DNA of 64,000 bases, from positions 1 through 64,000 of the forward strand of contig NZ_NFHZ01000005.1 of the NCBI RefSeq assembly GCF_002161555.1, given 5' to 3'. Below, piece after piece: positions 635 to 3,545 of this stretch. Position 1 is the stretch's first letter. Every line of letters starts with the position of its first letter. The notes under the pieces are model-generated. The model was not told where the DNA came from and made no database searches. It saw nothing but the letters and a program-made list of their open reading frames with translations. Position numbers and translations under genes: made by a program. The stretch comes from Barnesiella sp. An55 (GTDB lineage Bacteria; Bacteroidota; Bacteroidia; Bacteroidales; Barnesiellaceae).

Positions 635-666
635 CTTGTTTACATGAAGAAAAAAACTTATCTTTG
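635..666 (+). promoter_or_regulatory. Bacteroidetes-type promoter for the scaffold/GGGtGRT operon
   Basis: TTG at 636-638, a 20-base spacer, then TATCTTTG at 659-666, matching TAnnTTTG. The spacing is that of the Bacteroidetes primary sigma factor. It lies about 50 bases before the ATG at 716. Confidence 0.65.
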
Positions 667-715: not shown

Positions 716-1417
716 ATGGTTTATTCACACGAAGTAGAACACATGTGTGTTGTAAAGAAAGGTCCTAATCACGGACCGGCTCCTATCCCCGAAGAGGGAA
801 AATGGGTGAAAGCAAAAGAAGTGATTGATATTTCGGGCTTGACCCATGGTATCGGTTGGTGCGCTCCTCAACAAGGTGCTTGCAAACTGACGTTGAATGT
901 AAAGAACGGTGTTATCCAAGAAGCTCTGGTAGAGACTATCGGTTGCTCGGGTATGACTCACTCGGCCGCCATGGCATCGGAGATTCTCCCCGGTAAAACC
1001 ATCTTGGAAGCCTTGAATACCGACCTCGTTTGCGATGCCATCAACACGGCTATGCGCGAACTCTTCCTGCAAATCGTTTACGGTCGTACTCAGTCGGCCT
1101 TCTCGGAAGGCGGTCTGATGATCGGTGCCGGTCTCGAAGACCTCGGTAAAGGATTGCGCAGCCAGGTAGGTACGCTGTATGGAACATTGGCCAAAGGTCC
1201 CCGTTACCTCGAAATGACCGAGGGTTACATCAAGACTCTGGCTCTCGACGAGAACGACGAAATCATCGGTTACGAATTTGTTCACATGGGCAAATTCATG
1301 GAAGAGGTGAAAAAAGGAACCGACGCCAACGAGGCTCTCAAGAAAGTAACCGGTACCTACGGTCGTTTCACCAAAGAAGCCGGCGCAGTGAAATATATTG
1401 ATCCCCGTAACGAATAA
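716..1417 (+). CDS. NifU/IscU-like iron-sulfur scaffold protein of the GGGtGRT pair
   Basis: A 233-residue cytosolic protein related to the NifU/IscU N-terminal domain. Three cysteines fall where IscU-type scaffolds hold a nascent Fe-S cluster: C49 (GIGWCAP), C77 (ETIGCSGMTHSAAMASE) and C106 (LVCDAIN); C56 is a fourth nearby. The protein is longer than IscU (about 130 residues), with an added C-terminal half containing a GYEFVHMGKFMEEV segment. It starts at ATG 716 and is followed after 18 bases, with a strong AAGGAGGA ribosome site, by the GGGtGRT gene, so the two are surely co-transcribed. No isc, suf or nif gene is nearby, so general cluster assembly is not indicated. The scaffold relationship is visible; the client protein is inference, with the GGGtGRT partner most likely. 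Confidence 0.85.
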   Translation: MVYSHEVEHMCVVKKGPNHGPAPIPEEGKWVKAKEVIDISGLTHGIGWCAPQQGACKLTLNVKNGVIQEALVETIGCSGMTHSAAMASEILPGKTILEALNTDLVCDAINTAMRELFLQIVYGRTQSAFSEGGLMIGAGLEDLGKGLRSQVGTLYGTLAKGPRYLEMTEGYIKTLALDENDEIIGYEFVHMGKFMEEVKKGTDANEALKKVTGTYGRFTKEAGAVKYIDPRNE

Positions 1418-1435
1418 AATAAGGAGGAAGAGACT

Positions 1436-2446
1436 ATGATTAGAGAAGTGAAATTTGAAAGTCAAGACCGTCGTATCAAGCAAATTCTTGCTGCCTTGAA
1501 CGCTAACGGCATCAAAGATATTGAAGAGGCCAACGCCATCTGCGAATCTTACGGACTCGATCCTTATAAAACTTGCGAGGAGACTCAACCCATCTGCTTC
1601 GAGAACGCCAAGTGGGCCTATGTAGTAGGAGCTGCCATCGCCTTGAAGAAAGGTTGCAAAAACGCCGCCGACGCTGCCGAGGCCATCGGTATCGGTCTGC
1701 AGTCGTTCTGTATCCCCGGTTCGGTAGCCGACGACCGTAAAGTAGGTCTCGGTCACGGTAACCTCGCTGCCCGTCTGCTCCGCGAAGAGACCAAATGCTT
1801 CGCCTTCCTGGCCGGTCACGAGTCGTTTGCCGCTGCCGAAGGTGCTATCAAAATTGCCGCCAAAGCCGACAAAGTACGTAAAGAGCCCCTCCGTTGCATC
1901 CTCAACGGTCTGGGTAAAGACGCCGCACAAATCATCTCGCGTATCAATGGTTTCACCTATGTACAAACTCAGTTCGACTACTATACGGGCGAATTGAAAG
2001 TAGTTCGTGAAATCCCCTACTCCAAAGGCGAACGCGCCAAAGTAAAATGCTATGGCGCCGACGATGTACGCGAAGGTGTAGCCATCATGTGGCACGAAGG
2101 TGTGGACGTATCGATCACGGGTAACTCGACGAACCCCACGCGTTTCCAACACCCCGTAGCCGGTACTTACAAGAAAGAGTGCGTAGAGAGAGGTAAGAAA
2201 TACTTCTCTGTTGCATCGGGTGGTGGCACGGGCCGTACCCTGCACCCCGACAACATGGCTGCCGGTCCCGCCTCTTACGGTATGACCGACACGATGGGTC
2301 GTATGCACAGCGACGCTCAGTTCGCCGGTTCTTCGTCGGTACCTGCCCACGTAGAGATGATGGGCTTCCTCGGTATCGGTAACAACCCCATGGTAGGTTG
2401 CACCGTAGCTTGCGCCGTAGATGTAGCTACCGCCCTGAACAAGTAA
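1436..2446 (+). CDS. GGGtGRT-family protein, function unknown
   Basis: A 336-residue protein carrying the family signature GGGTGRT at residues 262-268, followed by conserved LHPDNMAAGPASYGMTDTMGR and a C-terminal GNNPMVGCTVACAVDVA segment. Cysteines occur in the N-terminal part (ICESYGLDPYKTCEETQPICF) and near the end (GCTVAC). No signal peptide or membrane segment is seen. The family (Pfam GGGtGRT) is found in anaerobes and has no established function that I know of. It is the second gene of a two-gene operon with the NifU-like scaffold, so an Fe-S or other metal cofactor is a fair guess. A strong terminator follows, and ferritin is the next gene. Confidence 0.85.
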   Translation: MIREVKFESQDRRIKQILAALNANGIKDIEEANAICESYGLDPYKTCEETQPICFENAKWAYVVGAAIALKKGCKNAADAAEAIGIGLQSFCIPGSVADDRKVGLGHGNLAARLLREETKCFAFLAGHESFAAAEGAIKIAAKADKVRKEPLRCILNGLGKDAAQIISRINGFTYVQTQFDYYTGELKVVREIPYSKGERAKVKCYGADDVREGVAIMWHEGVDVSITGNSTNPTRFQHPVAGTYKKECVERGKKYFSVASGGGTGRTLHPDNMAAGPASYGMTDTMGRMHSDAQFAGSSSVPAHVEMMGFLGIGNNPMVGCTVACAVDVATALNK

Positions 2447-2748
2447 TCGATAACACACAAGTATCGATACAGCAAAACCCCGTGACTCCTGTGAGTCGCG
2501 GGGTTTTTTGTTAGTGGCATACCGTGCTGCCACGGCGGCATCCATGCCGGGTGTGGCTGCCAAAATGTCCAGCAGAGAATCGGACAAGATTGCGCCGGTG
2601 GCGAAAATACGGCACGAAAATAGGGGTGGAGCAGTGCCTTGGAACTGACAGTGGGGCATACTGGTTGCTGGTTTGGTAGGTGGTACAGTTTTTGTAGAAC
2701 TATCTGTGGTTTTGAAAACTGAATATTAAACTTAAAAAATATAGCATT
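2447..2748. other. Intergenic region with one terminator, no gene seen
   Basis: Apart from the terminator at 2474-2511 I see no coding or RNA gene. A short open frame on the minus strand (2317-2541) lies partly antisense to the GGGtGRT gene and shows no protein features. No clear TAnnTTTG promoter for ferritin could be placed. Confidence 0.5.
2474..2511 (+). terminator. Rho-independent terminator after the GGGtGRT gene
   Basis: AACCCCGTGACTC pairs with GAGTCGCGGGGTT across a short loop and is followed by TTTTT. It closes the two-gene operon and separates it from ferritin. Confidence 0.85.
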
Positions 2749-3234
2749 ATGATCTCACAGAAATTACAAGAAGCCATTAACGTACAGATTACGGCCGAGA
2801 TGTGGTCGTCGAACCTTTATCTGTCGATGTCGTTCTATTTCAAGAAATTGGGATATGACGGATTTGCCAACTGGATGCGTAAACAGTCGCAGGAAGAGTT
2901 GACTCACGCCTACGAACTGGCCGACTATATGGCTAAACGTGGTGGTGTGGCCAAAGTGGATAAAATCGATGTAGTTCCTCAAGAGTGGGAAAACGTGCTC
3001 GATGCTTTCGAGAACGTATATCAACACGAGTGCCACGTATCGTCGCTGATCGACGAGTTGGTCAATGTGGCTTCGGCCGAGAAGGATAAAGCTACCCAAG
3101 ACTTCCTCTGGGGCTATGTTCGCGAACAGGTTGAAGAAGAGGCCACTGCCTTGAATATTGTTGAGAAACTGAAACGTTGCAAAGACGAATCGGGTATCCT
3201 CTTCCTGGATGACAAACTGGGTGAGAGAGAATAA
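2749..3234 (+). CDS. ftnA: Ferritin (FtnA type)
   Basis: A 161-residue four-helix ferritin that oxidises Fe(II) and stores iron as a mineral in a 24-subunit cytosolic shell. All ferroxidase ligands are present at E. coli FtnA numbering: E17, E50 and H53 (QEELTH), E94, Q127 and E130 (REQVEEE); Y24 is also kept. There is no haem-binding feature that would suggest bacterioferritin. Length is normal for the family. It stands alone between two terminators, immediately after the NifU-like/GGGtGRT operon, so an iron-related neighbourhood is plausible, but it is a separate transcript. Confidence 0.95.
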   Translation: MISQKLQEAINVQITAEMWSSNLYLSMSFYFKKLGYDGFANWMRKQSQEELTHAYELADYMAKRGGVAKVDKIDVVPQEWENVLDAFENVYQHECHVSSLIDELVNVASAEKDKATQDFLWGYVREQVEEEATALNIVEKLKRCKDESGILFLDDKLGERE

Positions 3235-3338: not shown

Positions 3339-3545
3339 ATGAAAAAGTTGTTATGCCCGCAGTGTAAGGTATCGGCCCTGTATGTGAAGAACGGGCAGGG
3401 CGATCGGCGGTCGGTTTATGTAACGGACGACTATCGGGTGGTGCCCCGCAACGATGGCGAAAGTCTCGAGGGGTTCGACCTGGAGACGGTCTATTGCCTG
3501 GGTTGCTCGTGGAGCGGTTCGCCCAGGCGATTGGTTCTCAGGTAG
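3339..3545 (+). CDS. Small zinc-ribbon-like protein
   Basis: A 68-residue protein with two cysteine pairs, C6-P-Q-C9 and C53-L-G-C56, spaced like a zinc ribbon. It is followed closely by a strong terminator. A GGGAG ribosome site precedes the ATG. No function is recognised. It lies 25 bases downstream of the ferritin terminator and may be expressed by read-through; no TAnnTTTG box could be placed between them. The balanced cysteine pairs argue that it is a real gene despite its size. Confidence 0.65.
   Translation: MKKLLCPQCKVSALYVKNGQGDRRSVYVTDDYRVVPRNDGESLEGFDLETVYCLGCSWSGSPRRLVLR

What the first reader, a model, noticed from the sequence alone, without database searches (positions are those of the whole stretch)
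716..3234. NifU-like scaffold and GGGtGRT protein form a two-gene unit of unknown function next to ferritin
The scaffold keeps the three cluster-binding cysteine positions of IscU/NifU (C49, C77, C106) but is nearly twice as long and lies outside any isc, suf or nif locus. It is tightly coupled (18-base gap, strong AAGGAGGA) to a GGGtGRT-family protein with an uncharacterised signature and several cysteines. This suggests a dedicated scaffold that builds or stores a cofactor for one client. Ferritin, the next gene, stores iron but has its own transcript. I know of no assigned function for the pair.
Basis: partly seen in the sequence, partly recalled or inferred. Interest (0 to 1): 0.62.

Follow-up and report, generated by a model that had tools for sequence, protein, structure and literature searches.

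The report
Iron-induced Fe-S scaffold-like protein pair
Many anaerobic bacteria carry an inseparable pair of highly conserved genes, one a changed relative of the protein that builds iron-sulfur clusters and one of unknown function, whose products two published studies found at higher levels when iron is plentiful; the likeliest role is holding iron-sulfur clusters in reserve, but this is untested.

Summary
The pair is real. U (716-1417) has an IscU-type core; G (1436-2446) is Pfam GGGtGRT. They are 18 bases apart, and a terminator separates them from ferritin. Of 295 Bacteroidales genomes 55 have both genes and 4 only one; of 245 clostridial-class genomes 115 have both and 3 only one; all seven exceptions lie at or near contig ends.

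Published tables show both genes fall 11-13-fold in iron-depleted Bacteroides thetaiotaomicron, and both proteins rise with iron in Clostridium pasteurianum. U keeps the fold and invariant C49, C77 and C106, but lacks the Asp that lets IscU donate its cluster and the LPPVK chaperone site. The pair coexists with SUF or ordinary IscU, has no other widely conserved neighbour, and 28 of 57 Bacteroidales carriers lack [FeFe]-hydrogenase. This speaks against that single client and for an Fe-S holding complex (confidence 0.4). Metal binding and U-G contact are untested. Side finding: tyrosine-recombinase elements integrate at the 3' end of G.

The parts
659..666 (+). Promoter-like TATCTTTG upstream of U (resembles the TAnnTTTG element of Bacteroidetes; that consensus is recalled)
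   Evidence: Read; the stretch around it is alike in the four loci of the genus (L001, L022, L023, L031)
716..1417 (+). U: IscU/NifU-like protein, 233 aa; IscU-type core about residues 39-128 and an extra C-terminal part; invariant C49, C77, C106, near-invariant C56
1421..1428 (+). AAGGAGGA ribosome-binding site of G, 7 nt before its ATG
   Evidence: read
1436..2446 (+). G: GGGtGRT protein (PF14057), 336 aa; invariant C121 and H107, H128, H239, H270, H291, H305
2474..2507 (+). Terminator-like hairpin (15 pairs) ending the two-gene unit
   Evidence: 8 such sites of any strength found in the region, 2.9 expected
2749..3234 (+). Ferritin gene (PF00210), a separate neighbour and not part of the conserved unit

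Best explanation
U and G form one functional unit that anaerobes make in large amounts when iron is plentiful. U descends from the IscU/NifU N-terminal scaffold: it takes up an iron-sulfur cluster (or its iron) at a site built from C49, C77 and C106, with C56 as possible extra ligand, but it has lost the Asp that lets IscU give its cluster away and the LPPVK loop that the HscA chaperone recognises. G is its obligate partner: its invariant glycine-rich loops and six invariant histidines cap the cluster on U, receive it, or enlarge it. The complex acts as an iron-sulfur buffer or reserve for an iron-hungry anaerobic metabolism, made when iron is abundant and not when it is scarce. Shown here: inseparability, extreme conservation, IscU-type fold of the U model, loss of Asp and LPPVK, coexistence with ordinary Fe-S assembly genes. 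Shown in print: iron-dependent levels and high abundance. Inferred: cluster binding, U-G contact, the storage role, any release mechanism.
For: Obligate pairing across phyla. Residues 39-128 of U superpose on IscU (Z 8.9, rmsd 2.0, 85 residues); profile match to six canonical IscU 95.8 %. CAPQQGxC with no Asp in 58 of 58; no LPxxK motif in 58 of 58 U against 6 of 6 IscU; PMC2644719 says loss of that Asp stabilises the cluster and obstructs donation (passages). Both genes -12.8 to -11 fold on iron depletion in B. thetaiotaomicron (PMC10434189, passages); both proteins up with excess iron in C. pasteurianum (PMC5395762, section). Proteins so named are abundant in rumen and chicken gut (PMC6043501 section; PMC11204068 passages and section). 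No single conserved neighbour; separate IscU or SUF present in the carriers tested.
Against: No metal, cluster or complex has been measured. Many plain iron-using enzymes also fall when iron is short, so iron dependence alone does not show storage. G is constrained like an enzyme (82 % mean column identity), more than a store would seem to need; in locus L059 G and U are 71 % and 75 % identical to the window's while the ferritin is 32.5 %. The U model is of middling confidence (pLDDT 69.9), Foldseek alone gave no match at E <= 0.001, and the third IscU cysteine is not matched by sequence. The organisms also have ferritins (284 of 295 Bacteroidales genomes hit PF00210).
Confidence: 0.4

Rival explanations
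1. U and G are two subunits of an uncharacterised anaerobic metalloenzyme. U carries the cluster as a fixed cofactor, not as cargo, and G supplies the Rossmann-like substrate-binding domain and the catalytic loops.
For: Extreme constraint on G: about 150 invariant columns in 58 sequences, six invariant His and one invariant Cys. The invariant stretches 263-268 and 297-303 are the least confident part of an otherwise good model, as ligand-ordered loops often are (inference). Loss of release features in U suits a fixed cofactor as well as a store. Strict pairing is typical of subunits.
Against: No fold match that names an enzyme class. No pathway neighbour. Abundance in metaproteomes is high for a minor enzyme.
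Confidence: 0.27
2. U-G is a general Fe-S carrier or alternative scaffold of anaerobes that passes clusters on to many enzymes, with G taking the place of the HscA/HscB release step.
For: IscU-type core, iron-replete expression beside Fe-S enzymes; in three Bacteroidales carriers U is the only NifU_N-type protein found.
Against: The Asp needed for donation is missing. Carriers already have SUF or IscU, and most genomes of the order do without the pair (238 of 295). No cysteine desulfurase is linked to it apart from one Collinsella case.
Confidence: 0.17
3. One reading: U builds a cofactor for one client, G itself being that client.
For: One-to-one pairing; correlated divergence of U and G, r 0.64 against at most 0.18 in 1000 permutations (species history is not removed, so this shows joint inheritance only).
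Against: No assembly gene joins them. A client outside the pair is not seen: [FeFe]-hydrogenase is rarer in carriers (29 of 57) than in non-carriers (170 of 238). A scaffold for a single client should release its cluster, yet the release Asp is gone.
Confidence: 0.13

Closest known systems
IscU / NifU N-terminal scaffolds (PF01592; NCBIfam iscU, NifU_clost)
   Same: Core fold over residues 39-128 of U, second cysteine, N-terminal YSxxV stretch, TIGCSG against TFGCG motif
   Different: 233 aa instead of about 130-150; no Asp at the first site, CAPQQGxC instead of CGD; no LPxxK; shortened stretch before the last helix; extra C-terminal part; under the curated cut-offs; obligate partner G
SufU
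   Same: Same IscU fold superfamily, no LPPVK
   Different: SufU has a 19-residue insertion between the second and third Cys and keeps the Asp (PMC2644719); U is shorter there and lacks the Asp; NCBIfam score 18.5 against a cut-off of 92.5
GGGtGRT family (PF14057)
   Same: G is a full-length member
   Different: Nothing; the family has no assigned function in the papers seen
IssA, iron-sulfur store of Pyrococcus furiosus (PMC5524996, abstract)
   Same: Proposed role only: storing Fe and S in an anaerobe
   Different: IssA belongs to the NifB/NifX-related family and its expression is sulfur-responsive (section title); no such domain hit in U or G at E <= 0.001
Ferritin
   Same: Neighbour in the window's genus; in B. 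thetaiotaomicron the ferritin gene also falls on iron depletion, 2.7-fold
   Different: Unrelated protein, separate terminator, adjacency rarely seen elsewhere

Membership tests
GGGtGRT (PF14057) | Match over the curated cut-off along the whole profile | tested here: met
   642.6 bits against 27, positions 1-326 of 327
IscU/NifU_N scaffold (PF01592) | Score over the curated family cut-off | tested here: not met
   U of the window 20.5 bits against 22; relatives at 21.3, 22.1, 22.6 and 23.5 straddle it
IscU/NifU_N scaffold (PF01592) | IscU fold | tested here: met
   Ranks 1-23 of the second look are IscU or SufU chains, best Z 8.9 over 85 residues; Foldseek alone had no match at E <= 0.001
IscU/NifU_N scaffold (PF01592) | Three cluster-ligand cysteines | tested here: inconclusive
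   Three invariant Cys; one aligns firmly, one depends on the alignment, one not by sequence
IscU/NifU_N scaffold (PF01592) | Asp just after the first Cys, needed for donation | tested here: not met
   CAPQQGxC, x not Asp or Glu, in 58 of 58; CGD in 6 of 6 clostridial IscU
IscU (ISC system) | LPPVK chaperone motif | tested here: not met
   LPxxK in 0 of 58 U and 6 of 6 clostridial IscU, exact LPPVK in 3 of those 6
IscU/NifU_N scaffold (PF01592) | Transient Fe-S cluster assembled with a cysteine desulfurase | not testable with these tools
   Needs biochemistry; no desulfurase in the conserved unit, one SufS nearby in Collinsella
SufU | Insertion between second and third Cys, Asp kept | tested here: not met
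   U lacks the Asp and is shorter than IscU in that stretch; NCBIfam 18.5 of 92.5 bits
NifU proper (TIGR02000) | Full three-domain NifU score | tested here: not met
   14 bits against 273.3
IssA-type iron-sulfur store | NifB/NifX-type (IPR003731) domain | tested here: not met
   No such Pfam match in U or G at E <= 0.001

The most novel reading that the evidence does not exclude
The U-G pair is an unrecognised iron-sulfur cluster reserve of anaerobes: an IscU descendant locked in the holding state by loss of its release Asp and chaperone loop, capped or enlarged by GGGtGRT, made in bulk when iron is plentiful, widespread in gut and rumen bacteria and hidden under the label 'nitrogen-fixing protein NifU'.
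Probability: 0.28. Interest if true: 0.85.

Novelty: new variant of a known kind. Interest (0 to 1): 0.58.

Why it matters
Strict anaerobes run on Fe-S enzymes, and how they buffer clusters, as opposed to bare iron, is largely open (my judgement). Here is an inseparable pair, very conserved across phyla, abundant in gut and rumen metaproteomes and iron-responsive in two phyla, with no function given in the open-access passages I saw. One member is reported as 'Nitrogen fixation' in a rumen metaproteome (PMC6043501), a label probably carried over from its name. Gene removal and metal analysis in one laboratory Bacteroides would settle most of it.

Tried and rejected
Ferritin partnership: not a conserved link. 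A relative of the window's ferritin lay in the flanks of 3 of 32 Bacteroidales loci, all of the window's genus, the window itself among them, and of 1 of 80 further loci, L059 at 32.5 % identity. Flanks were 1.5 kb and up to 6 kb; distant ferritins could be missed.

Client [FeFe]-hydrogenase: 29 of 57 carriers have it, 170 of 238 non-carriers, and this genome does not. Other clients were not tested.

Alternative to ferritin: not testable by co-occurrence, since 284 of 295 genomes hit PF00210.

Chance pairing or assembly artefact: rejected. One-gene genomes: G only in G318 and G448, U only in G431 and G475 (Bacteroidales); G only in G744 and G827, U only in G598 (clostridial class). All seven hits run into a contig end or, for G827, stop 48 bases from it. 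G827 has only pieces of the 3' end of G.

Fold of G: no PDB chain and no BFVD model at E <= 0.001, one PDB sequence at E 0.02 taken as chance, VIA best Z 8.3 (GmhA), which the tool's own note calls a common level. The two highest rows are SIS-domain proteins by recall; not relied on.

C-terminal part of U and N-terminal helical part of G: not searched alone, both prediction jobs being used; nothing is claimed about their folds.

Iron-regulator box: the upstream alignment of 32 loci showed a promoter-like element, no clear common regulator site by eye.

Neighbours: the gene picker chose U and G in only 58 of 80 loci each, apparently because antisense ORFs won; apart from U, G and an antisense cluster of 27 loci the widest cluster covers 14 of 80 loci at scattered places. 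Genes under 70 aa and remote homologues were not seen.

C. difficile iron study PMC6311696: the NifU named there lies with iscR-iscS2, not this pair (passages).

Codon bias: G is the most biased of 46 mechanically chosen window ORFs (ENC 33.9, median 42.9); U is not among the 12 lowest. Weak evidence.

Literature: 9 open-access papers name GGGtGRT. I saw passages of five (PMC10434189, PMC5395762, PMC11204068, PMC7035244, PMC9942572), one section each of PMC5395762 and PMC11204068 and listings of the other four. None of what I saw gives a function. Further searches. Subscription papers and preprints could not be searched.
Full report
What is there. Two genes on the + strand: U 716-1417 (233 aa) and G 1436-2446 (336 aa), 18 nt apart, with AAGGAGGA seven bases before the start of G. 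G is a full-length GGGtGRT protein (PF14057, E 1.4e-193); U touches NifU_N over residues 57-113 only and below the curated cut-off. A 15-pair terminator-like hairpin follows G at 2474-2507, so ferritin at 2749-3234 is probably a separate unit.

Is the pair conserved? In 32 loci from this order (the window's own locus L001 among them) U is next to G in all; in L021 only its last 23 residues are visible because the contig ends. U lies directly upstream on the same strand in 78 of 80; L098 and L105 start too close to G to show it; in L077 only residues 103-231 of U were matched. Record titles name mostly Clostridia, and also Gastranaerophilales, Spirochaetes, Desulfoarculaceae, Elusimicrobiales, Succinivibrio and others (many are MAGs, so titles may err). 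In the plasmid collection the same 10 records hold G and U, among them Collinsella, Vibrio and Persicobacter. Over 115 loci with both genes the median gap is 14 nt and 102 gaps are at most 60 nt.

Whole genomes. Bacteroidales: 57 of 295 have G, 57 of 295 have U, 55 both. Class of G589 (the genome of the Anaerotruncus locus L055): 117 of 245 have G; 152 match the U profile at E <= 0.001, of which I set aside 36 whose best match is weak (E 1e-7 or worse; those listed cover a short part of U, as ordinary IscU and SufU do), leaving 116; 115 have both. The seven one-gene genomes all lie at or within 48 bases of a contig end. In the phylum at large 3 of 296 sampled genomes have G, all of this order, and of 14 control genomes only Bacteroides ihuae rings. 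G390 holds a decayed remnant of both genes.

The proteins. Residues 39-128 of U superpose on IscU (Z 8.9, rmsd 2.0, 85 residues; ranks 1-23 are IscU or SufU chains), though Foldseek alone gave no match at E <= 0.001 (its best rows were IscU) and the model is middling (pLDDT 69.9, pTM 0.58). Profile comparison with six canonical clostridial IscU gives 95.8 %. U and IscU share the N-terminal YSxxV stretch. The site differs: CGD in 6 of 6 IscU, CAPQQGxC without Asp in 58 of 58 U; LPxxK in 6 of 6 IscU (exact LPPVK in 3), in 0 of 58 U. Vibrio U has lost C56. PMC2644719 states that replacing this Asp stabilises the cluster and obstructs donation, and that LPPVK is the HscA contact (passages). C49, C77, C106, H44 and H82 of U are invariant, C56 nearly so; of G's cysteines only C121 is, with H107, H128, H239, H270, H291 and H305. 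G is modelled well (pLDDT 84.1, pTM 0.86) as a helical N-terminal part and a Rossmann-like part, except the invariant stretches 263-268 and 297-303, which I read as a ligand or partner site. No solved relative was found. Mean column identity over 58 sequences is 76 % for U and 82 % for G. Their divergence is correlated over 83 sequences (r 0.64, permutations at most 0.18); species history is not removed.

Ordinary Fe-S assembly. Two SufB/SufD-type genes are present in the window's genome and in four other Bacteroidales carriers; of four carriers of other groups two have one weaker match and two none. PF01592 finds only U in three Bacteroidales carriers, but a strong separate IscU/NifU in the four others. 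The pair thus sits on top of whichever system is there. No third gene is widely conserved beside it. [FeFe]-hydrogenase is not a general client: 29 of 57 carriers against 170 of 238 non-carriers (Fisher p 0.004, species not independent).

Expression in print. PMC10434189 lists BT0173-74 (GGGtGRT, NifU) at -12.8 to -11 fold in iron-depleted B. thetaiotaomicron, P printed as 0 (passages). PMC5395762 Table 2 lists F502_05012 (GGGtGRT) 7.1 and 2.2-fold and F502_05017 (NifU-related; two spots) 2.4 and 3.7, 1.6 and 2.9-fold higher with excess iron in early and late phase of C. pasteurianum; 7.1 is the largest early-phase excess-iron ratio I see there (section). That these are the U-G pair rests on names and neighbouring tags. 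PMC6043501 lists 'nitrogen-fixing protein NifU' among the 25 most abundant rumen protein families in 3 of 3 cows (0.28, 1.72, 1.47 %; section), a name that RefSeq gives to U in Collinsella and Parabacteroides. PMC11204068 calls GGGtGRT highly expressed in vivo (passages and section). The iron papers, in what I saw, put the NifU gene with the nitrogen cycle or list the GGGtGRT protein as hypothetical.

Interpretation. Iron-replete induction in two phyla, abundance, an IscU-like site shorn of its release features and an obligate, nearly unchanging partner fit a complex that holds Fe-S clusters in reserve (0.4). The chief rival is a metalloenzyme with U as cluster subunit (0.27), favoured by the constraint on G. 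A general carrier (0.17) and a single-client scaffold (0.13) remain possible. None of the chemistry was tested.

Side finding. The 3' end of G is a recurrent integration site. Seven clostridial-class genomes with a complete G also hold a displaced copy of its last codons (G608, G609, G705, G719, G759, G768, G808), as do G552 and G403 in Bacteroidales and viral or phage contigs. Regions of eight of these genomes were fetched (G768 not): in five a tyrosine recombinase lies directly downstream of G (L142, L143, L144, L147, L149; PF00589), in three none of 150 aa or more was recognised (L145, L146, L148). Four of four viral contigs tested (L035-L038) encode one. The longest exact stretch shared by G and the displaced end is 29-83 bp in seven regions (no chance control). 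The Bacteroidales and viral-contig enzymes carry an Arm-DNA-bind_5 domain, the four clostridial ones show none at E <= 0.001.

Noticed in passing
L142, L143, L144, L147, L149; viral contigs L034-L039: The conserved 3' end of the GGGtGRT gene serves as integration site: displaced gene ends, shared stretches of 29-83 bp and adjacent tyrosine recombinases, in Bacteroidales and in the clostridial class.
   Followed up: partly
L044:3791-3982, L013:1294-1485; similar small ORFs in L010 and L016: In some Bacteroidales a small hydrophobic, membrane-like protein of about 63 aa is coded between U and G.
   Followed up: no
G390:C33:34763-35456: Decayed remnant: the first 66 residues of U with stops run directly into residues 163-327 of G, so the pair seems to have been lost together.
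   Followed up: no
G634 contigs C66 and C4: One clostridial-class genome carries two complete U-G pairs.
   Followed up: no
window 3339-3545: A 68-aa ORF with two CxxC motifs follows ferritin; not searched further.
   Followed up: no
literature: PMC6043501, PMC9942572: U is filed under 'Nitrogen fixation' in a rumen metaproteome, and GGGtGRT is listed beside haemolysin-type genes in a section on putative factors of Clostridium innocuum (one passage); both look like effects of naming.
   Followed up: no
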